Of a DNA stretch of 64,000 bases, positions 2-16,216 are shown piece after piece; position 1 is the stretch's first letter, and the number at the start of each line of letters is the position of its first letter. The stretch spans positions 1 through 64,000 of IMG/VR virus record IMGVR_UViG_3300044675_004257. One strand, 5' to 3'. The stretch is from a virus. A program made the position numbers and the translations under genes. Below the pieces are notes generated by a model. That model was not told where the DNA came from. It saw only the letters and a list, made by a program, of their open reading frames with translations, and ran no database searches.

Positions 2-1753
2 AGTGAATTTCACAATTTAGAAGTTTCAAACAACGATAATTATGATGAAAGATTATTAAAGAAGATATCAAAATCTTTGCCTTACATGACAAAGATTGCA
101 TTGACGGAACCAGGAAAATTCTTAGATGTTAATTCTGAAAATGTAGAAGAGCAAATTGTAACAGAAAATGAAATACCTCTACCCGAGTCTGTAGATGCAT
201 CGTTTATAACCGAATGGGATAAAATTTCTAATGGTTCTAAAAAATTCATACTATCATATTATAAAAAATACAATCATTTTCCTTTGATTGAGTATGATAG
301 TAAACACCACCGAAATCACGCATCATTATCTTTTTATAATAGTGGTTTTGACAAAGCAATTATACTTGTTGCTGATGGTGCTGGTGAGGTAAATTTTGCA
401 ACAGCAGAAGATGGTAAATTTATTAATTATAAAGAGATTGAATCTTTATATGTTGGTGATTATCCCAGTTCAATAGAACCAATTTACAAAAACTTTGGAT
501 CGTATGAGGGACATAATTATACAAAAGAACTTGCAAGGTGGAAGAAAAACTATCCGTATTGTGAAGTTGTTTTTGGTAATTATATGGGTATAGGATTCTT
601 ATATGGCTGCGGTGCGATTCATATTAATGAAACAATGGAAGAAGCCGGCAAAGTGATGGGTTTATCTTCATACGGAAAAGCAACAAATAATAATTATATA
701 AAAAATAATTACTTTGTTAACACCGATTTATTTGATTGTGCAGCACATGATTTTTTACCGATATTTGCACCACCAAATGGATATCCTGAAAATTTCAAAT
801 ATAAACCAGTACACGAAAATACACCAACGCAAATAGGTGGTCCGGAAACAATAATTGCTTTGAAAGGTTTACCTTTACAAAAGATTATCACAAAAACAAA
901 TTATAAACCTTATGCTGATTTTGCAAAAGATATACAGTTACAGACGCAGCAGATTGCTGTGAATTTAATAAAAAAAGCAATAGATAAAACTGGTATAAAA
1001 AAGGTTTGTGTTTCTGGTGGGTATGGAATGAATATACTTTCAAATTCATACTATGTAAAACAATTTCCTGATGTTGAGTTTTATTTTGAACCATTGTCGA
1101 TTGATAGTGGAATTTCAATTGGTTGTGCAATGTATCATTATCACAAAGAAACTGGTGATTGCACTATTAGACCAGTTAAAAGTATTTCATTTCATGGATT
1201 CAAACATGATGTTACCTCATACAAAGGCACCGATGCATCAACAAAAGATATTGCAAAATTACTATATGATAACAAATCTGTTGCAGTATACACTGGTCTG
1301 GCTGAAGCTGGCCAACGTGCATTAGGCAATCGTTCAATTTTGTTTAATGCATTGAATGTGGATGCAAAAGATATTGTTAATAAAATCAAACGCAGAGAAT
1401 GGTATAGGCCATTTGCTGCTGTTGTTTTAGAAGAAGATGCTGAGTTGTATTTTGATATGGGTAGAACGAAGAAGAATTTGTTTATGACACAATCGTTTGA
1501 TGTTAAGACTGATTTGATTCCTGGCGTCACTCATGTGGATAACACATGTAGAGTGCAGACTGTATCTGAAGGATACTTGTATGACCTTTTGGTTGAATTT
1601 AAAAAACTTTCAGGTCACGGCATTCTTTTAAACACCAGTTTCAACCTTGCAGGTAAACCTTTGGTAGAAACACCAAAGCAAGCCATAGAAACTTTAAATA
1701 CTTCAGTATTAGATTATCTTTGGTTTGAGGAAACAGGACAATTAATTACCTAA
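2..1753 (+). CDS. Carbamoyltransferase, NodU/CmcH family (5' end outside window)
   Basis: Family members move a carbamoyl group from carbamoyl phosphate onto sugars or small molecules. Seen: the histidine cluster HHRNHASLSF followed by DGAGE (about nt 300-390), and in the C-terminal half GQRALGNRSILF, YRPFAAVVL and LNTSFNLAGKPLV, all typical blocks of the family. The frame is open to the left edge with no start codon, so the N-terminal part including the first HD motif lies outside. The gene ends 9 bases before the promoter of the tRNA operon. The substrate is not visible; the sugar-transfer genes at 13.8-17.5 kb make glycan decoration a reasonable inference. Confidence 0.9.
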   Translation, partial: SEFHNLEVSNNDNYDERLLKKISKSLPYMTKIALTEPGKFLDVNSENVEEQIVTENEIPLPESVDASFITEWDKISNGSKKFILSYYKKYNHFPLIEYDSKHHRNHASLSFYNSGFDKAIILVADGAGEVNFATAEDGKFINYKEIESLYVGDYPSSIEPIYKNFGSYEGHNYTKELARWKKNYPYCEVVFGNYMGIGFLYGCGAIHINETMEEAGKVMGLSSYGKATNNNYIKNNYFVNTDLFDCAAHDFLPIFAPPNGYPENFKYKPVHENTPTQIGGPETIIALKGLPLQKIITKTNYKPYADFAKDIQLQTQQIAVNLIKKAIDKTGIKKVCVSGGYGMNILSNSYYVKQFPDVEFYFEPLSIDSGISIGCAMYHYHKETGDCTIRPVKSISFHGFKHDVTSYKGTDASTKDIAKLLYDNKSVAVYTGLAEAGQRALGNRSILFNALNVDAKDIVNKIKRREWYRPFAAVVLEEDAELYFDMGRTKKNLFMTQSFDVKTDLIPGVTHVDNTCRVQTVSEGYLYDLLVEFKKLSGHGILLNTSFNLAGKPLVETPKQAIETLNTSVLDYLWFEETGQLIT

Positions 1754-1762
1754 AAAATATGC

Positions 1763-1791
1763 TTGACAAGACAATGTAAAGCCTATATAAT
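1763..1791 (+). promoter_or_regulatory. sigma70-type promoter of tRNA-groES operon
   Basis: Consensus TTGACA (1763-1768), 17-bp spacer, consensus TATAAT (1786-1791). It lies between the carbamoyltransferase stop and the first tRNA, whose 5' end is 12 bases past the -10 box. It should drive both tRNA-Gly genes, groES, the next small gene and the tRNA-Met. Confidence 0.85.
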
Positions 1792-1802
1792 ACACACATG
1801 AT

Positions 1803-1877
1803 GCGGGTATGGTGCTAGTGGTAACACAAGACCTTGCCAAGGTTTAGTTGAGGGTTCGATTCCCTCTACCCGCTCCA
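1803..1877 (+). tRNA. tRNA-Gly (anticodon GCC)
   Basis: Full cloverleaf: acceptor GCGGGTA pairs with TACCCGC, anticodon loop TTGCCAA gives anticodon GCC, T arm GAGGG-TTCGATT-CCCTC, and TCCA is encoded at the 3' end. First gene after the promoter at 1763-1791. Confidence 0.95.
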
Positions 1878-1887
1878 GTATAGAATT

Positions 1888-1961
1888 GCAGGGTTAGTTT
1901 AATGGTAAAACTCCATCCTTCCAAGTTGGTGTCGTGGGTTCGATTCCCACACTCTGCTCCA
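1888..1961 (+). tRNA. tRNA-Gly (anticodon TCC)
   Basis: Acceptor GCAGGGT pairs with ACTCTGC (one G-U), anticodon loop CTTCCAA gives TCC, T arm GTGGG-TTCGATT-CCCAC, encoded TCCA end. The anticodon stem has one T-T mismatch. It lies 10 bases after tRNA-Gly(GCC); together the two read all four glycine codons by wobble. Confidence 0.93.
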
Positions 1962-2047: not shown

Positions 2048-2293
2048 ATGAATATTAAACCCTTGCATGATAAAGTATTGATTGAACGTATTGAGAATGT
2101 CAAAGAGACCGCTTCAGGCATCATCCTAAAACATTCCGAAGATCCAGATAAAGCAAGAGTACTTGCAGTTGGTCCGGATGTTACAGAAGTCCAGGTCGGT
2201 GATGTGGTTCAACCAGACTGGGGTAAGGCCGCAGCAGTGCAAGATTATTTCGTGGTGAAGATTGAAGACATAGCTTACATCTACGGAGAGTAA
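2048..2293 (+). CDS. groES: GroES-like co-chaperonin (T4 gp31 role)
   Basis: Co-chaperonin that would cap host GroEL, as gp31 does in T4 for folding of the major capsid protein. The N-terminus MNIKPLHDKVLIERI and the mobile-loop end SGIIL match GroES; the following VLAVGPDV and VQVGDVV are family blocks. At 81 residues it is shorter than GroES (about 97), mainly because the roof-loop region is reduced. Start chosen at 2048: GAGG (2039-2042) lies 5 bases upstream, whereas the upstream in-frame ATG at 2003 has no ribosome site and sits inside the tRNA-like element. Cotranscribed with the tRNAs. Confidence 0.9.
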   Translation: MNIKPLHDKVLIERIENVKETASGIILKHSEDPDKARVLAVGPDVTEVQVGDVVQPDWGKAAAVQDYFVVKIEDIAYIYGE

Positions 2294-2295
2294 AC

Positions 2296-2532
2296 ATGTC
2301 TGCTGGTGGTAAAGGTTCTAGTCCAAGGCCGTTTAGTGTTTCACAGGAAACATTTGGTAATAACTACGACAATATTTTTAGAAAAAAATCACTAAAAGAA
2401 TTAGAAGAAGATAAAATCGAACAAGAAGAATTTGATAGAATCTTAGAGGAAAATCTAGAACGTCAAAGACGGGAAAAGTCTTTAGATGCCATGGTGGCAG
2501 AAAATCAAAGATTAGGTTTATACGACAACTAA
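2296..2532 (+). CDS. Small charged phage protein, unknown function
   Basis: 78 residues. The N-terminal third is Gly/Ser/Pro-rich (GGKGSSPRPFSVSQ), followed by a Glu/Lys/Arg-rich stretch with strong helix or coiled-coil character (KELEEDKIEQEEFDRILEE). The start is 3 bases after the groES stop, so translation is probably coupled. It sits between groES and the tRNA-Met in the same transcript. No family with a known role is recognised. Confidence 0.75.
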   Translation: MSAGGKGSSPRPFSVSQETFGNNYDNIFRKKSLKELEEDKIEQEEFDRILEENLERQRREKSLDAMVAENQRLGLYDN

Positions 2533-2535
2533 TAC

Positions 2536-2608
2536 AGCGGGTTGGTGAAATGGTATCACAGTGGGCTCATAATCCTCAGTTCCGGTTCGACTCCGTGACC
2601 CGCAACCA
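2536..2608 (+). tRNA. tRNA-Met (CAT) with initiator (fMet) features
   Basis: Anticodon loop CTCATAA, as in bacterial initiator tRNA. Aligned on the AACCA end, base 1 (A2536) faces A72 (A2604) and is unpaired, while bases 2-7 GCGGGT pair with ACCCGC. An open 1:72 pair is the hallmark of bacterial initiators. The anticodon stem has GGG opposite TCC rather than the full GGG/CCC, and the anticodon and T stems each have one mismatch. If numbering starts at 2537 it could be read as elongator Met or tRNA-Ile2, but the 3' end then does not fit NCCA. The next base starts the stop codon of the convergent gene. Confidence 0.85.
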
Positions 2609-3382
2609 TTAATCCTTATACACTTCATATATAAATTCCGCTTCAGGAATTCTTGTCTTTGTATTCTTACTACCCAATACAACAACCACTCTATCACCTT
2701 CACTTGTGTCTAATAGAATCGTGATACATCCACCAGATTCATTTATAAAACCAGTCTTACTGACTATTATATTTTGATAGTGTCCTATCATTGGGTTTGT
2801 GTTACGAAAAACAAACCATTTCTTCTTTACTTTTATTTTTATTTCTAACTTGCGGCTAGCATAAACTATATTGCTGTATTCTGCCGCAGCTTTTGTCAAC
2901 GTCACCAATTCTCTTGCGGTGCTAACATTTCTTTCGTCTAATCCTGTTGGTTCATAAACAATGGATTTTTCCATTTGTAATTTTTTCAACTTATCATTCA
3001 TAGCCTTGACACAGGCCGGCATACCACCAGGATAATGTTCACATAGTGTATATGCGGCTCTATTACTACTGTGTATCATGGTCATAGAAACCAAATTTGC
3101 TCGACTGACAACTTGGTTTTTTACTGGTAATCTATCTTTTATTTTTGTAGTCATTGTCAACATCTGGCTCATGTTAGGATTCGTATCCATCACAACCATG
3201 ACAGTTAACAATTTTGTTATACTGGCAATAGGCCTAATCTTATCATAATCTTTACCACCTAATATAGTGCCATTTAAATCCGACACAATCCAGGATTTGG
3301 CTGTGAAGAATTCTGCTTTGACTGGTGATTGACCAAGAAGTATGGTGAAAAATAACAGAGTAATAAAAATTCTATATAACAA
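2609..3382 (-). CDS. Secreted D-Ala-D-Ala carboxypeptidase/endopeptidase (peptidase S11)
   Basis: Penicillin-binding-protein fold enzyme that cleaves peptidoglycan peptides in the periplasm. The three active-site motifs are present: SITK (SxxK), SSN (SxN) and SKTG (KTG). The N-terminus (LYRIFITLLFFTILLGQSPVKAEF) is a signal peptide. At 257 residues it is about the size of the core domain of PBP7-type enzymes without the C-terminal beta domain. The start is TTG at 3382, supported by GGAG 7 bases upstream and an in-frame stop just before it. Last gene of a three-gene reverse-strand operon. It may modify the host wall during infection or aid lysis; it differs from the muramidase-type endolysin at 26.3 kb. 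Confidence 0.88.
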   Translation of the reverse strand: MLYRIFITLLFFTILLGQSPVKAEFFTAKSWIVSDLNGTILGGKDYDKIRPIASITKLLTVMVVMDTNPNMSQMLTMTTKIKDRLPVKNQVVSRANLVSMTMIHSSNRAAYTLCEHYPGGMPACVKAMNDKLKKLQMEKSIVYEPTGLDERNVSTARELVTLTKAAAEYSNIVYASRKLEIKIKVKKKWFVFRNTNPMIGHYQNIIVSKTGFINESGGCITILLDTSEGDRVVVVLGSKNTKTRIPEAEFIYEVYKD

Positions 3383-9993: not shown

Positions 9994-11341
9994 AGAATAT
10001 TTACGCAAGGTTTTACCATTTCTAAAATCAGAATATTTTACAGACAGAAGCGACAAAACATTATACAATGAAATTGCATCATTCACAGAAACTTACAATT
10101 CTACACCAACGGTTGAAGCACTTGTACTGGCCGTCAAAGAAAGGCGAAATCTCTCAGATGAGGAAGTGGAGAAGTGTGAATCTTATTTACAAGAGATTGA
10201 GAAAACTAAAGGTGAAGAATCCAAGGTTCAATGGCTTGTTGACAAGACCGAACAGTTTTGCCAAGAGAAGGCCATTTATAACGCTGTATTGGGGTCTATT
10301 TCAATCCTCGATGGCAAGGACAAAACAAATGACAAAGGTTCGATTCCCAAAATATTATCAGACGCCTTGGCGATAAGTTTTGACAATTCTGTTGGCCACG
10401 ATTATCTTGAAAACTCAGATGAACGATATGATTTCTACCATCGTAAAGAAGAACGAATCCCTTTTGACTTAGAGTTCTTTAACAAAATCACAAAAGGTGG
10501 CTTACCTAATAAGACGCTTAATATTGCTCTTGCCGGAACTGGCGTAGGAAAAAGTTTGTTCATGTGCCATGTGGCTGCAGGCTGCATGGTGCAAGGCAAG
10601 AATGTTCTTTACATCACGATGGAAATGAGTGAAGAAAAGATTGCAGAACGTATTGATGCTAACTTATTGAATGTCACGATTGATGACCTTGTGAGTTTAC
10701 CGAAAGATTTGTATGATAAAAAGATTAATAAACTCCGTGAAAAGACTGTTGGTAAACTTATTATCAAAGAATATCCTACAGCCTCTGCGAGCAGCATACA
10801 TTTTCGCACCTTACTCAATGAGCTCAATCTTAAAAAGTCTTTTGTACCCAATATTATTTTTATTGATTATCTTAATATTTGTTGTTCATCAAGAATCAAG
10901 GCCGGAGCAAACATCAACTCCTATACTTATGTTAAATCCATCGCAGAAGAATTGCGAGGTCTTGCCGTTGAGTTCGGAGTACCTATTGTTTCTGCAACAC
11001 AAACAACAAGAGGTGGCTTTACTTCTTCCGATCCCGGACTCGAAGACACAAGTGAGTCTTTTGGTTTGCCCGCTACAGCAGACTTGATGTTTGCTCTTAT
11101 TTCTTCCGAAGAACTAGAAGAAATGGGACAGATTATGGTAAAACAATTGAAGAATCGTTATAATGATCCAACGCATTTCAAACGATTCACTCTAGGTATT
11201 GATAGGTCGAAAATGAGATTATATGATATTGAACAGTCTAGCCAAGATGGCATCACGGATTCTGGTCAAGATAAACCACTCAACACATTTGGTAACAGAG
11301 AGAAAACACAGAAGAAATCATTCGATGGATTTAAAGTATGA
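9950..11341 (+). CDS. 41: Replicative DNA helicase, DnaB family (T4 gp41)
   Basis: Hexameric 5'-3' helicase that partners the primase. Walker A GTGVGKS lies near residue 200; Walker B is IIFIDYLNI. The downstream block VPIVSATQTTRGG matches the DnaB sensor region. About 463 residues, close to T4 gp41. Start taken at ATG 9950 with AGGA 8 bases upstream; a TTG lies one codon earlier. ATGA overlap with the next gene. Confidence 0.95.
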   Translation: MKLEQTILKNLIYNEEYLRKVLPFLKSEYFTDRSDKTLYNEIASFTETYNSTPTVEALVLAVKERRNLSDEEVEKCESYLQEIEKTKGEESKVQWLVDKTEQFCQEKAIYNAVLGSISILDGKDKTNDKGSIPKILSDALAISFDNSVGHDYLENSDERYDFYHRKEERIPFDLEFFNKITKGGLPNKTLNIALAGTGVGKSLFMCHVAAGCMVQGKNVLYITMEMSEEKIAERIDANLLNVTIDDLVSLPKDLYDKKINKLREKTVGKLIIKEYPTASASSIHFRTLLNELNLKKSFVPNIIFIDYLNICCSSRIKAGANINSYTYVKSIAEELRGLAVEFGVPIVSATQTTRGGFTSSDPGLEDTSESFGLPATADLMFALISSEELEEMGQIMVKQLKNRYNDPTHFKRFTLGIDRSKMRLYDIEQSSQDGITDSGQDKPLNTFGNREKTQKKSFDGFKV

Positions 11342-12444
11342 AATTAGAATTTAATGATGCAGTTCATTGCGCCAAAGTATTTGAAGATTACTTTGGTAGT
11401 TTTGACCGTATTGATGAGTATATGCGTGACCAAAAGTTGAATTCTTTGGCCGAATTGCCATCCAATCCTTTGTTTCCGATTGAAGATGAGTTGTTTCAAG
11501 ACTTCACAATGAATCCAAAAAATATGAATTTTGAGGTTGTCGAGATTGATAATGAAACTTGGACCAATCTATTGAACATCACTTCATCTCATGTAAACAT
11601 TCCGCCAGTTGGCCGCAATGTTAAACTGGCAGTGCGTGAAACCAATACAGGAAAGTACGTAGGATTCATCCGTCTTGGTTCACCTGTAATCAACTGTAAG
11701 CCACGTAATGATATGCTTGGTCAAGTGTTTACACAAAAACCTGAGTGGGGTAAACGATTCAATAATTCTGCAATGATGGGTTTTGTTATTGTACCTGCAC
11801 AACCATTTGGTTATAATTACCTTGGTGGTAAATTGTTGGCTGCAATCTGCACTTCACATGAAGTACGTGAGATTGTAAATGTAAAGTATGGAATGAACCT
11901 GTGTCTCTTTGAAACAACTTCTTTGTATGGTAGTTCAAAGACTGTATCGCAATATGATGGTATGAAACCATATATCAGATATAAAGGTCTGACAGATTCC
12001 GATTTTCTTCCTATGATGCATGGTAAACCTTATTCTGACCTACGTGATTTCGTACAAGATAAAGTCGGACCTTTGGTTGAAGATGTTGCTTCTAGTAAGA
12101 AACTGAAAATCTCTATGAAGATTATTTCTCTCACTAAGGCTGCACTTAAAGGTACACCTGAAGGGGATACATTCATAGCAACGATTGGGAAAGCAAAAGG
12201 GTTGACAGAGCAAAAAAGATATTACACCAGTGACTATGGCTTTAAAAACATGGTTGACTATGTAAACTGTAAGACGGACGTGCTTATTCCTGGTGAAAAC
12301 TATGAAAAACACAATCTGGTAAACTTGATTGAATGGTGGCGAAATAAGGCTTGCAATCGGTATGAAACTCTGTATAATGAGAAACGGTTAAAAACCGAAC
12401 TAGAGATTTGGACTTCCGGAAAGGAGATTCAAATCATAAGATAA
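11338..12444 (+). CDS. Conserved phage protein after the helicase, unknown
   Basis: 368 residues, starting in an ATGA overlap with gp41. The central part (YVGFIRLGSPVIN, GFVIVPAQPFGYNYLGGKLL, FETTSLYG) is rich in Gly and aromatic residues and looks like an enzyme-type alpha/beta core. There is a faint resemblance to DUF4338 (DruA-like) proteins, but I cannot verify it and no catalytic motif is certain. Coexpression with the replication genes suggests a DNA-related role. Confidence 0.75.
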   Translation: MKLEFNDAVHCAKVFEDYFGSFDRIDEYMRDQKLNSLAELPSNPLFPIEDELFQDFTMNPKNMNFEVVEIDNETWTNLLNITSSHVNIPPVGRNVKLAVRETNTGKYVGFIRLGSPVINCKPRNDMLGQVFTQKPEWGKRFNNSAMMGFVIVPAQPFGYNYLGGKLLAAICTSHEVREIVNVKYGMNLCLFETTSLYGSSKTVSQYDGMKPYIRYKGLTDSDFLPMMHGKPYSDLRDFVQDKVGPLVEDVASSKKLKISMKIISLTKAALKGTPEGDTFIATIGKAKGLTEQKRYYTSDYGFKNMVDYVNCKTDVLIPGENYEKHNLVNLIEWWRNKACNRYETLYNEKRLKTELEIWTSGKEIQIIR

Positions 12445-13851: not shown

Positions 13852-14571
13852 ATGAAACCGTTAGTGACTGTGATTACACCTACAACAGGTGCACCGTATC
13901 TACGACAAGCGATAGAGTCGGTTAAAAATCAAACTTATGATAACATTCAACACTTAGTTGTTGTAGATGGTCAACCAAAAGGTCGTGTTATTGCTAGAGA
14001 ATATCCACATATTGACCTAATAGACCTCCCATACCCAACAGGAACCGACCGGTTCAACGGACACCGAATCTATGGTGCATCAGTCTACCTTGCAAAAGGT
14101 GACCTGGTTTGTTTCTTGGATGAGGATAATTACTATGATTACACACATATTGAATCTCTTGTGGATGTAATCCAAAGAGGTAATGATTGGGCTTATTCTT
14201 TACGTAAGATTGTAGACAAAGATGGTAATCATGTATGTTTGGATGATTGTGAATCATTAGGTAAATGGGAATCTTGCATTGGTGACTACTTTGTTGACGT
14301 TGGTTGTTTCTTTCTACCAAAGATGATTGCAATTCAAACAAGTCCAATCTGGTATCGTAAGGCAAGAGAACCTGGAGTACCAGAAGTTGATAGAATGTTA
14401 ACTCATGTATTGAGAAACAACAACTTGAAATATGACACTAATGCAAATTACAGTTTGAACTATCGTACAGGTAACACACAGTTATCAGTACAATCCGAAT
14501 TCTTCTTACAAGGAAATAAGAAGATGCTTGAAAAATATAATGGAGATTTACCATGGACAAAAAAGACCTGA
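13852..14571 (+). CDS. Family 2 (GT-A) glycosyltransferase
   Basis: 239 residues. N-terminal GT2 signature PLVTVITPTTGAPYLRQAIE followed by NQTYDNIQHLVVVDG, and an acidic DxD-like motif FLDEDN for the nucleotide sugar and metal. First of five sugar-related genes (13.85-17.45 kb). Donor and acceptor cannot be read from sequence; likely targets are phage DNA bases, virion proteins or host surface glycan. Overlaps the next gene by 19 bases. Confidence 0.88.
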   Translation: MKPLVTVITPTTGAPYLRQAIESVKNQTYDNIQHLVVVDGQPKGRVIAREYPHIDLIDLPYPTGTDRFNGHRIYGASVYLAKGDLVCFLDEDNYYDYTHIESLVDVIQRGNDWAYSLRKIVDKDGNHVCLDDCESLGKWESCIGDYFVDVGCFFLPKMIAIQTSPIWYRKAREPGVPEVDRMLTHVLRNNNLKYDTNANYSLNYRTGNTQLSVQSEFFLQGNKKMLEKYNGDLPWTKKT

Positions 14572-15413
14572 TTATAGGTGCATTTAAAAACTATAACTAC
14601 GAACAAGTCAAACCTTGGATCGAATCAATTAACGAATGTGGTTTTACCGGCGACAAAGTTCTAATTGCGATTGATTCATCAGAAGAAACAATCAACAATA
14701 TTAGACAAGCCGGATTCACTGCAATATCCGCACAATCCATGACAGGCGCAATGTTTCACATGGAACGATTTATTCATATCTATGATTATCTGAAAAAACA
14801 TAGTGGTCAATATCGTTATGTTGTAAGTACAGATGTACGTGATGTAATCTTTCAAAACGATCCAATGGAATATTTGTCTCATATACTGACAGCAAATTCT
14901 GGTTATGATTTGATTGGTGTGTCTGAATGTATACTAGTTAAAAATGAACATTGGAATCGTGACAACATTTTAAAATGTTTTGGTACATATTTCTATGAAG
15001 AAGTTAAAGACTATGAGGTTTTAAATGTTGGTACGTTAGCTGGCAAGGCACATGTTATTTCTGATTTGTGTGGTATGTTATACCAACTATCTTTGAATAG
15101 AGCAGATTGGGTTGCCGACCAAGCTGCATATAATGTTTTAATGGGTTGGTATCCATATGTTGATATAACATACATCAGTGGTTTAAATGATGGATTCTGT
15201 TGTAACTTACATGTAACAAATAAACCAATTGAGAAAGACCAATTTGCACCATTCATTACAGAAAAACATCCAATCTTTGAAGATGGTGTAATGAAAACTG
15301 GTGATGGTCAACCATACTACATTGTACACCAATATGACCGAGATCCAGAATTGAAGAAATTTTATCATGATAAGTATAAGGTTGAAGAATTAATTACTTT
15401 TAGGACAACATAA
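14553..15413 (+). CDS. Putative glycosyltransferase-like protein
   Basis: 286 residues. It starts LIIGAFKNYNYEQVKPWIES and has a GT-A-like acidic motif VVSTDVRDVIF (DxxD) at the place where a DxD would bind metal, followed by LNVGTLAG and WVADQAAYN blocks seen in nucleotide-sugar transferases of the GT8/WlaTC type. The family assignment is tentative. It starts inside the end of the GT2 gene and ends in a TAATG junction. Confidence 0.75.
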   Translation: MDKKDLIIGAFKNYNYEQVKPWIESINECGFTGDKVLIAIDSSEETINNIRQAGFTAISAQSMTGAMFHMERFIHIYDYLKKHSGQYRYVVSTDVRDVIFQNDPMEYLSHILTANSGYDLIGVSECILVKNEHWNRDNILKCFGTYFYEEVKDYEVLNVGTLAGKAHVISDLCGMLYQLSLNRADWVADQAAYNVLMGWYPYVDITYISGLNDGFCCNLHVTNKPIEKDQFAPFITEKHPIFEDGVMKTGDGQPYYIVHQYDRDPELKKFYHDKYKVEELITFRTT

Positions 15414-16216
15414 TGATTACTATTGTTACTGCTTTTTATGACATTGGCCGTGGAGAATGGACACCAGACAAAGGCCTACCACATTATCTACAAAGAACTA
15501 CTGATACATACATTGAACGTTTTTCACACATGGCTCAAATGGAAAATGAGATGGTTGTATTCTCTACACCAGACATTATTGAGAAACTGAAACCTTTGCG
15601 TGGCGACAGACCAACAAAATTTGTTTCGTTTGATATTTTTAGTAAGTATGCAGACTTGATTAAAGATGTTAATAACATTCAGAAAACTGATGCATTTCAA
15701 AATTTAATTATTCCAGAACAGCGAGCAAATCCAGAATATTGGAATGCACATTATGTTGTTGTTAACTTTCTCAAGTCGGTGTTTGTCAATCTAGCAATCA
15801 AAAACAATATGGTTAGTAATGAATTAGTTTCTTGGTTGGATTTTGGTTATTGCCGCACGGCAGAGAAAGTTCCTGCAAGCAAGAAATGGTCTTATGATTT
15901 TGATGTTAATAAGATGCATCTATTCAATTATAAAGAATATGATGACAAACCTATACATGAAATCATTGCAACAAACGATGTTTACATTCTTGGTGCAAAG
16001 ATTGTTGGTGGTGTAACAGCATGGCCTAAATTCGAATCTGCGATGAAAGAATGTTTGATTGAATTGGGTACGAATGGTTTGATTGATGATGACCAAACAC
16101 TTATGTTAATGTCATCAATCAAATATCCGGAATTATTTGAACTACATAAGATTCCAGACCACCAACTCGGACTTGATCCGTTTGTTATTTTTAGTGACTT
16201 TAATAAAGAGGTATGA
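15413..16216 (+). CDS. HtrL/YibB-like protein, glycosyltransferase-like
   Basis: 267 residues. The opening ITIVTAFYDIGRGEW, then YIERFSHMAQMENEMVVFS, then the block SWLDFGYCR, match the HtrL/YibB (WlaTC-related) family, found in lipopolysaccharide loci and thought to be sugar transferases. Third gene of the glycan cassette, TAATG-coupled to the gene before. Confidence 0.8.
   Translation: MITIVTAFYDIGRGEWTPDKGLPHYLQRTTDTYIERFSHMAQMENEMVVFSTPDIIEKLKPLRGDRPTKFVSFDIFSKYADLIKDVNNIQKTDAFQNLIIPEQRANPEYWNAHYVVVNFLKSVFVNLAIKNNMVSNELVSWLDFGYCRTAEKVPASKKWSYDFDVNKMHLFNYKEYDDKPIHEIIATNDVYILGAKIVGGVTAWPKFESAMKECLIELGTNGLIDDDQTLMLMSSIKYPELFELHKIPDHQLGLDPFVIFSDFNKEV

What the first reader, a model, noticed from the sequence alone, without database searches (positions are those of the whole stretch)
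2536..2608. Phage-encoded tRNA that looks like an initiator (fMet)
Seen: the CTCATAA loop, AACCA end and an unpaired 1:72 position (A against A) when aligned from the CCA end. Known: a broken 1:72 pair and GC pairs next to the anticodon mark bacterial initiator tRNAs; phage tRNA sets usually carry elongators. The GGG/CCC rule is only partly met (GGG opposite TCC). Inference: the phage may bolster initiation when host tRNAs are degraded or limiting.
Basis: partly seen in the sequence, partly recalled or inferred. Interest (0 to 1): 0.58.

Follow-up and report, generated by a model that had tools for sequence, protein, structure and literature searches.

The report
Phage-encoded variant initiator tRNA
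This virus of bacteria carries its own copy of the special transfer RNA that starts proteins, in a form that keeps the features needed to be a starter but changes the spot where some bacterial toxins are known to cut the host's version.

Summary
The window is a fragment of a T4-like phage, and 2536-2608 is a CAU tRNA with an A.A mismatch at 1:72. It is most likely a working but non-canonical initiator tRNA.

Evidence for: covariance models from bacterial tRNAs score it 51.6 bits (fMet), 41.2 (elongator Met) and 36.9 (Ile2). Relatives carry separate elongator-Met and Ile2 CAU tRNAs. Over 36 related phages, 1:72 changes eight times but pairs in only one of 33 framed cases. G2:C71, C3:G70 and G30:C40 never change.

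The pair next to the loop, 31:39, is what is lost: G:C in 5 of 36 phage initiators (not in the window), against 2 of 299 Pseudomonadota genomes showing a non-G31 initiator. All 36 lack the A38|C39 step at which enteric VapC toxins cut host tRNA-fMet.

The nearest long relative has tRNAs for all 20 amino acids plus this initiator. So the best reading is a replacement initiator within a phage-owned tRNA pool; resistance to cleavage is possible but untested.

Against: T11:A24 and G31.U39 fail canonical features, and a body-wide position score favoured elongator Met. Phage initiator tRNAs are already on record, so this is a new variant of a known kind.

The parts
2536..2608 (+). initiator-type tRNA gene (CAU) with encoded CCA
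   Evidence: ARAGORN; RF00005 39.3 bits; bacterial fMet covariance model 51.6 bits against 41.2 (elongator Met) and 36.9 (Ile2)
2536..2536 (+). position 1 (A), facing A2604 (position 72): the unpaired 1:72 that marks bacterial initiators
   Evidence: non-pairing in 32 of 33 framed phage initiators
2563..2575 (+). anticodon stem 29-31 (GGG 2563-2565), loop CTCATAA (2566-2572), stem 39-41 (TCC 2573-2575); 29:41 and 30:40 are G:C, 31:39 is G.U
1763..1791 (+). perfect sigma-70 promoter (TTGACA, 17, TATAAT) 11 bases upstream of the first tRNA-Gly; could transcribe tRNA-Gly, tRNA-Gly, groES, ORF and initiator tRNA as one unit (inferred)
   Evidence: 12 of 12 consensus bases
1803..1877 (+). tRNA-Gly (GCC)
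1888..1961 (+). tRNA-Gly (TCC)
2048..2293 (+). GroES-like co-chaperonin gene; a GroES-like gene lies near the initiator tRNA in many relatives
   Evidence: phrog_3188, E 1.2e-15; tblastn linkage
2296..2532 (+). 78-aa ORF of unknown function; its stop ends 3 bases before the tRNA
   Evidence: no family match

Best explanation
The gene encodes a non-canonical initiator tRNA. After charging with Met by host MetRS (CAU, A73) it would be formylated by the host formyltransferase, through the unpaired 1:72 and G2:C71, C3:G70, G4:C69, and would enter the 30S P site, where 16S rRNA inspects pairs 29:41 and 30:40. Those elements are kept; the uninspected pair 31:39 and the usual A11:U24 are not. It serves as the initiator member of a phage-owned, near-complete tRNA set that keeps phage translation going when the host pool is degraded or cut. 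Shown here: the sequence features, the presence of separate elongator-Met and Ile2 genes in relatives, and the selective conservation. Inferred: transcription from the upstream sigma-70 promoter, charging, formylation, use in initiation, and the circumstance of use.
For: Covariance models from 26 fMet, 26 elongator-Met and 25 Ile2 bacterial tRNAs give the window tRNA 51.6, 41.2 and 36.9 bits; of 11 phage initiator-like tRNAs scored, 9 score best with fMet. Over 36 related phages the fewest changes per pair are 1:72 8, 2:71 0, 3:70 0, 30:40 0, against 10 for 31:39, 14 for 27:43 and 16 for 50:64. 1:72 is A.A 20, C.A 9, T.T 3, T:A 1 of 33 framed cases. In the same loci, 244 of 249 non-CAU tRNAs pair at 1:72. 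11 of 36 loci carry another CAU tRNA of paired (elongator or Ile2) type as well. The nearest long relative (G001, behind L003) has elongator Met, Ile2, the initiator, and tRNAs for all 20 amino acids. Peptide deformylase is present in 9 of 13 records searched. Formylation determinants: passage in PMC9976931. 16S contacts to 29:41 and 30:40: passage in PMC11497404.
Against: R11:Y24, named as a formyltransferase element in PMC9976931, is T11:A24 here. G31:C39 is G.U. A position-by-position body score (leave-one-out 110 of 111 on bacterial tRNAs) put the window tRNA with elongator Met, 19.9 against 15.7; only its acceptor-only version favoured fMet (15.1 against 13.0). Two of 11 relatives scored (L045, L056) score higher with the elongator-Met model. 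An AU/GC/GU stem, related to this one, impairs growth when put in E. coli (passage in PMC10568206). No phage formyltransferase was found in 13 records, and the window record itself has no deformylase. The stem mismatches could mean decay, though six close relatives share nearly all of them.
Confidence: 0.75

Rival explanations
1. It is a diverged elongator tRNA-Met whose 1:72 pair decayed by drift.
For: Body-wide position score favours elongator Met by about 4 bits; T11:A24 is elongator-like; several stem mismatches.
Against: The pair fails in only 5 of 249 other phage tRNAs. The mismatch is kept through eight changes, including T.T in L008, L069 and L078; shuffling base 72 over 25 distinct tRNAs gives 3.9 paired on average against 1 seen, P 0.009, not corrected for kinship. 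Relatives have a separate elongator Met with loop TTCATAC and a paired 1:72. The fMet covariance model wins by 10.4 bits.
Confidence: 0.1
2. It is an Ile2 tRNA (CAU modified to lysidine-AU) that reads AUA.
For: Same anticodon and loop as Ile2; the anticodon-stem-plus-D-arm score alone favoured Ile2 by 4.5 bits over elongator Met.
Against: Lowest of the three covariance scores, 36.9 bits; acceptor has G4:C69, G5:C68; relatives carry a separate Ile2-type tRNA beginning GGGCC.
Confidence: 0.04
3. It is an initiator-derived tRNA that is no longer functional, carried along with the array.
For: Three mismatched pairs and a short variable loop; the lowest Rfam score of the three tRNAs in the window, 39.3 bits.
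Against: The window, L001, L002, L003, L006, L008 and L049 share almost the same tRNA while the polymerase of L049 is about 80 percent identical; functional pairs show no change in 36 phages while other pairs do.
Confidence: 0.08
4. On the side question of 31:39: the change is simply relaxed constraint; phages do not need this pair, and no nuclease is involved. (This is compatible with the best explanation.)
For: 16S rRNA contacts 29:41 and 30:40 only (passage in PMC11497404). Other non-contacted pairs (6:67, 7:66, 27:43, 50:64) change as much as 31:39.
Against: Bacteria keep G31:C39 almost without exception, so losing it carries some cost in cells; and the five phage initiators that keep G31:C39 have C instead of A at 38. 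These five are few and related.
Confidence: 0.5

Closest known systems
Bacterial initiator tRNA-fMet (E. coli metZWV; L323)
   Same: CAU anticodon, unpaired 1:72, G2:C71, C3:G70, G4:C69, A73, G29:C41, G30:C40, encoded CCA.
   Different: A1.A72 instead of C1.A72; T11:A24 instead of A11:U24; G31.U39 instead of G31:C39; 3-base variable loop; 73 instead of 77 bases.
Other phage CAU tRNAs of initiator type, e.g. Caulobacter phage CcrPW (annotated tRNA-fMet), Streptomyces phage Coruscant, mycobacteriophage Phox
   Same: Phage-encoded; G2:C71 and a weak or absent 1:72 pair in most of the 21 examined.
   Different: Most are annotated only as tRNA-Met; 10 of 21 keep G31:C39. Coruscant shares the short variable loop and a very similar D arm, but its 1:72 is A.C.
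Unconventional initiator tRNA of Mycoplasma pneumoniae (AU/GC/GU stem)
   Same: Middle G30:C40 kept, third pair a G.U (passage in PMC10568206).
   Different: Cellular, with compensating changes in IF3, rRNA and ribosomal proteins described there; in the window 29:41 is G:C.
Phage tRNAs with anticodon-loop changes proposed to evade tRNA nucleases (van den Berg et al. 2023, PMC10264068)
   Same: Same idea: phage tRNAs altered next to the nuclease cut site.
   Different: The passages read say phages generally avoided encoding tRNA-fMet where VapC-LT2 is the nuclease; here a phage clade encodes it with 38 or 39 altered.

Membership tests
canonical bacterial initiator tRNA-fMet | no Watson-Crick pair at 1:72 | tested here: met
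   A.A in the window; non-pairing in 32 of 33 framed phage initiators
canonical bacterial initiator tRNA-fMet | G2:C71, C3:G70, G4:C69 and A73 (formyltransferase minor determinants, PMC9976931 passage) | tested here: met
   all four in the window; 2:71 and 3:70 unchanged over the tree, 4:69 changes 5 times in relatives
canonical bacterial initiator tRNA-fMet | R11:Y24 | tested here: not met
   T11:A24; 62 of 62 bacterial initiators have A11:T24
canonical bacterial initiator tRNA-fMet | three G:C pairs 29:41, 30:40, 31:39 | tested here: not met
   first two met, third is G.U; the two contacted by 16S rRNA are the ones kept
canonical bacterial initiator tRNA-fMet | best score with an fMet model | tested here: inconclusive
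   covariance models say fMet by 10.4 bits; body-wide position score says elongator Met by 4.2 bits
canonical bacterial initiator tRNA-fMet | formylated, IF2-bound, used in the P site | not testable with these tools
   needs biochemistry
elongator tRNA-Met | paired 1:72 | tested here: not met
   A.A
tRNA-Ile2 (lysidine) | paired 1:72 and C4:G69, C5:G68 in the acceptor (recalled as lysidine-synthetase determinants) | tested here: not met
   A.A, G4:C69, G5:C68
VapC-resistant phage tRNA | altered bases at the 38|39 cut site | tested here: met
   A|T in the window; A|C in 0 of 36 phage initiators; cut site from PMC4105405 passage
VapC-resistant phage tRNA | actually resists cleavage | not testable with these tools
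   needs an in vitro cleavage assay

The most novel reading that the evidence does not exclude
Phages of this clade, and many tRNA-rich phages, encode a cleavage-proof initiator. They keep the elements read by formyltransferase in the acceptor stem and by the 16S A-minor contacts, but change the bases on either side of the 38|39 bond that VapC-type toxins cut, so that phage initiation continues after the host destroys its own tRNA-fMet. The weakened stem works because host initiator is then scarce.
Probability: 0.3. Interest if true: 0.75.

Novelty: new variant of a known kind. Interest (0 to 1): 0.5.

Why it matters
If right, phages do not only supplement elongation: they carry a replacement for the single tRNA on which all bacterial initiation depends, in a form that separates which initiator features matter for formylation and P-site entry (kept) from one that cells conserve for other reasons (31:39, lost). 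That gives natural variants for testing what the third G:C pair is for, and makes the idea of phage tRNAs as counter-defence testable on initiation.

Tried and rejected
Elongator Met, Ile2 and decayed gene were considered and are ranked as rivals. Prophage or host origin of the window gene was rejected: the record is a T4-like fragment (DNA polymerase, UvsX, RIIA, ribonucleotide reductase) with phage kin throughout. A phage formyltransferase was sought and found in 0 of 13 records. Host identity was not worked out. The body-wide position score disagrees with the covariance models; my reading is that the bacterial fMet class is so uniform that any diverged initiator falls into the broader elongator class, but that is an interpretation. 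Its labels used 1:72, 11:24 and 4:69, so its leave-one-out figure is partly circular, and the covariance models were trained on the same labels. The bacterial set is biased, because its pattern fixes A38, C40 and a pyrimidine at 39; the less biased control leaves 27-31 and 39-43 free but fixes A38 and a bacterial-type D arm, so genomes with diverged initiators are missed (236 of 299, 89 of 198 and 169 of 198 genomes matched). Rows dropped: L068, L071 and L073 from acceptor counts (acceptor frame shifted by an extra base), L311 and five archaeal loci from the bacterial set, one tRNA each in L163 and L171 that my parser could not read (such rows were skipped unlisted). L003 was not in the 36 because ARAGORN missed its tRNA. 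Paper searches for phage-encoded initiator tRNAs; for complete phage tRNA sets. That bacteriophage T5 encodes a tRNA-fMet is recalled, not looked up; at the T5-like record fetched a tRNA-Met is annotated but ARAGORN reported none.

Full report
What is there. The window is the first 64,000 bases of an IMG/VR virus record of 77,659 bases. Its genes are those of a T4-like myovirus: DNA polymerase about 50 percent identical to Synechococcus myoviruses, DnaB-like helicase, ribonucleotide reductase, RIIA, UvsX, T4 RNase H. It holds three tRNA genes, Gly(GCC), Gly(TCC) and the CAU tRNA at 2536-2608; the remaining 13.7 kb of the record has none.

The tRNA. From the CCA end, A1 faces A72, the acceptor continues G2:C71, C3:G70, G4:C69, G5:C68, G6:C67, T7:A66, and A73 precedes CCA. 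The D stem has T11:A24. The anticodon stem has G29:C41, G30:C40 and G31.T39, with T.T at 28:42. The variable loop is three bases, and 50:64 is C.T. RF00005 gives 39.3 bits.

Which CAU tRNA. I built covariance models from 26 bacterial fMet, 26 elongator-Met and 25 Ile2 tRNAs, labelled by 1:72, 11:24 and 4:69. The window tRNA scores 51.6, 41.2 and 36.9 bits. In the 11 sources searched, 9 of 11 initiator-like tRNAs score best with fMet; those of L045 and L056 score best with elongator Met. The Ile2-type tRNAs of L017, L020, L034, L054 and L056 score best with Ile2, so the models do separate types. Against this, a position-by-position score over the whole body put the window tRNA with elongator Met (19.9 against 15.7), and only the acceptor-only version put it with fMet.

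Relatives. A DNA polymerase scan gave 80 loci, chosen without regard to tRNAs. With the window, 36 of the 81 hold a CAU tRNA that is unpaired at 1:72, or in one case T:A; these are 27 distinct sequences. Many of the other loci are short contigs that do not reach the site. L003, one of the nearest relatives, has it too but ARAGORN missed it. In 11 of the 36 loci a further CAU tRNA of paired type is present. The nearest long relative, the record behind L003, has an elongator Met with loop TTCATAC, an Ile2-type tRNA beginning GGGCC, the initiator, and by ARAGORN tRNAs for all 20 amino acids. Peptide deformylase is found in 9 of 13 records searched, not in the window's fragment; formyltransferase in 0 of 13.

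What evolution keeps. On a tree of the 36 DNA polymerases (quick method), fewest changes per pair are: 1:72 8, 2:71 0, 3:70 0, 10:25 0, 30:40 0, 53:61 0; against 4:69 5, 29:41 5, 31:39 10, 11:24 10, 6:67 11, 28:42 12, 7:66 13, 27:43 14, 50:64 16. At 1:72 the states are A.A 20, C.A 9, T.T 3 and T:A 1 of 33 framed tRNAs. Pairing at 1:72 is normal for other tRNAs of the same phages: 244 of 249. A shuffle of base 72 over 25 distinct tRNAs gives 3.9 pairs on average against 1 observed (P 0.009), without correction for kinship. The unchanging pairs include two named for formylation (passage in PMC9976931) and one of the two that 16S rRNA contacts in the P site (passage in PMC11497404); the other, 29:41, is G:C in 27 and A:T in 9 of 36. 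10:25 and 53:61 also never change and are, from general knowledge, common to most tRNAs.

What evolution does not keep. 31:39 is A:T 17, G.T 7, G:C 5, C:G 4, T.G 3 of 36. In bacteria it is nearly fixed. With a pattern that leaves 27-31 and 39-43 free, 236 of 299 Pseudomonadota genomes match, and 2 of 299 hold a version without G31, both C31:G39. In Bacteroidota 89 of 198 match, and every listed row is G31:C39; in Actinomycetota 169 of 198 match, and every row shown is G31:C39, the list being cut. Enteric VapC cuts tRNA-fMet between A38 and C39 (passage in PMC4105405). In the 36 phage initiators 38|39 is A|T 24, A|G 6, C|C 5, C|G 1, never A|C; the five that keep C39 have C38. These are related phages, so this is few independent events. 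In a wider scan of viral contigs, with G30, C40 and A72 fixed by the pattern, A|C occurs in 30 of 96 distinct initiator-like tRNAs, and in 8 of 39 where the locus holds at least four anticodons; some of the rest are probably host tRNAs at prophage ends. Of 22 named phage loci that I picked from BLAST lists, 21 gave a readable CAU tRNA; 10 of 21 keep G31:C39, and by my reading, 6 of 21 keep A38|C39.

Setting and expression. A perfect sigma-70 promoter lies at 1763-1791, 11 bases before the first tRNA-Gly. The tRNA begins 3 bases after the stop of a 78-aa ORF that follows groES. Transcription as one unit is inferred. In relatives a GroES-like gene often lies close by, on either side.

How it most likely works. 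A host-charged, host-formylated phage initiator that replaces or supplements host tRNA-fMet within a near-complete phage tRNA set. The features needed for that are the ones that stay. Whether the altered 38|39 step protects it from VapC-type cutting, or is merely tolerated because the ribosome does not inspect 31:39, is open; I favour tolerance (0.5) over protection (0.3).

What is known. Phage initiator-type tRNAs exist in public records, mostly labelled tRNA-Met; CcrPW's is labelled tRNA-fMet. Van den Berg et al. (PMC10264068; passages) propose that phage tRNAs evade tRNA nucleases and state that phages generally avoid encoding tRNA-fMet in the VapC-LT2 case; Sf14 lacks one (PMC12482277; passages). 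Mycoplasma pneumoniae has an AU/GC/GU initiator stem (PMC10568206; passages). I found no paper describing the loss of 31:39 in phage initiators with searches in the held library, which lacks most subscription journals.

Noticed in passing
window 1763-1791: A sigma-70 promoter with 12 of 12 consensus bases directly upstream of the tRNA-Gly genes.
   Followed up: partly
window 11338-12441: Protein matching PF14236 (Druantia protein DruA), 37 bits over a cut-off of 27, inside a phage replication region.
   Followed up: no
L068, L071, L073 (acceptor 3' strand): Initiator-like tRNAs with an extra base in the 3' acceptor strand, seen in neighbouring phages of the tree.
   Followed up: partly
L379 (record behind L003): A phage with tRNAs for all 20 amino acids plus separate elongator-Met, Ile2 and initiator CAU tRNAs.
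   Followed up: partly
L348 (Streptomyces phage Coruscant, 151-222): A CAU tRNA with the same short variable loop and a nearly identical D arm as the window's, in an unrelated phage.
   Followed up: no
   Followed up: no
window 77-1753 and 13852-16216: Carbamoyltransferase, glycosyltransferase and HtrL_YibB-like genes that suggest sugar or cap modification by the phage.
   Followed up: no
window 2609-3382, minus strand: A D-alanyl-D-alanine carboxypeptidase-like gene (PF00768) that ends against the tRNA's CCA, convergent with it.
   Followed up: no
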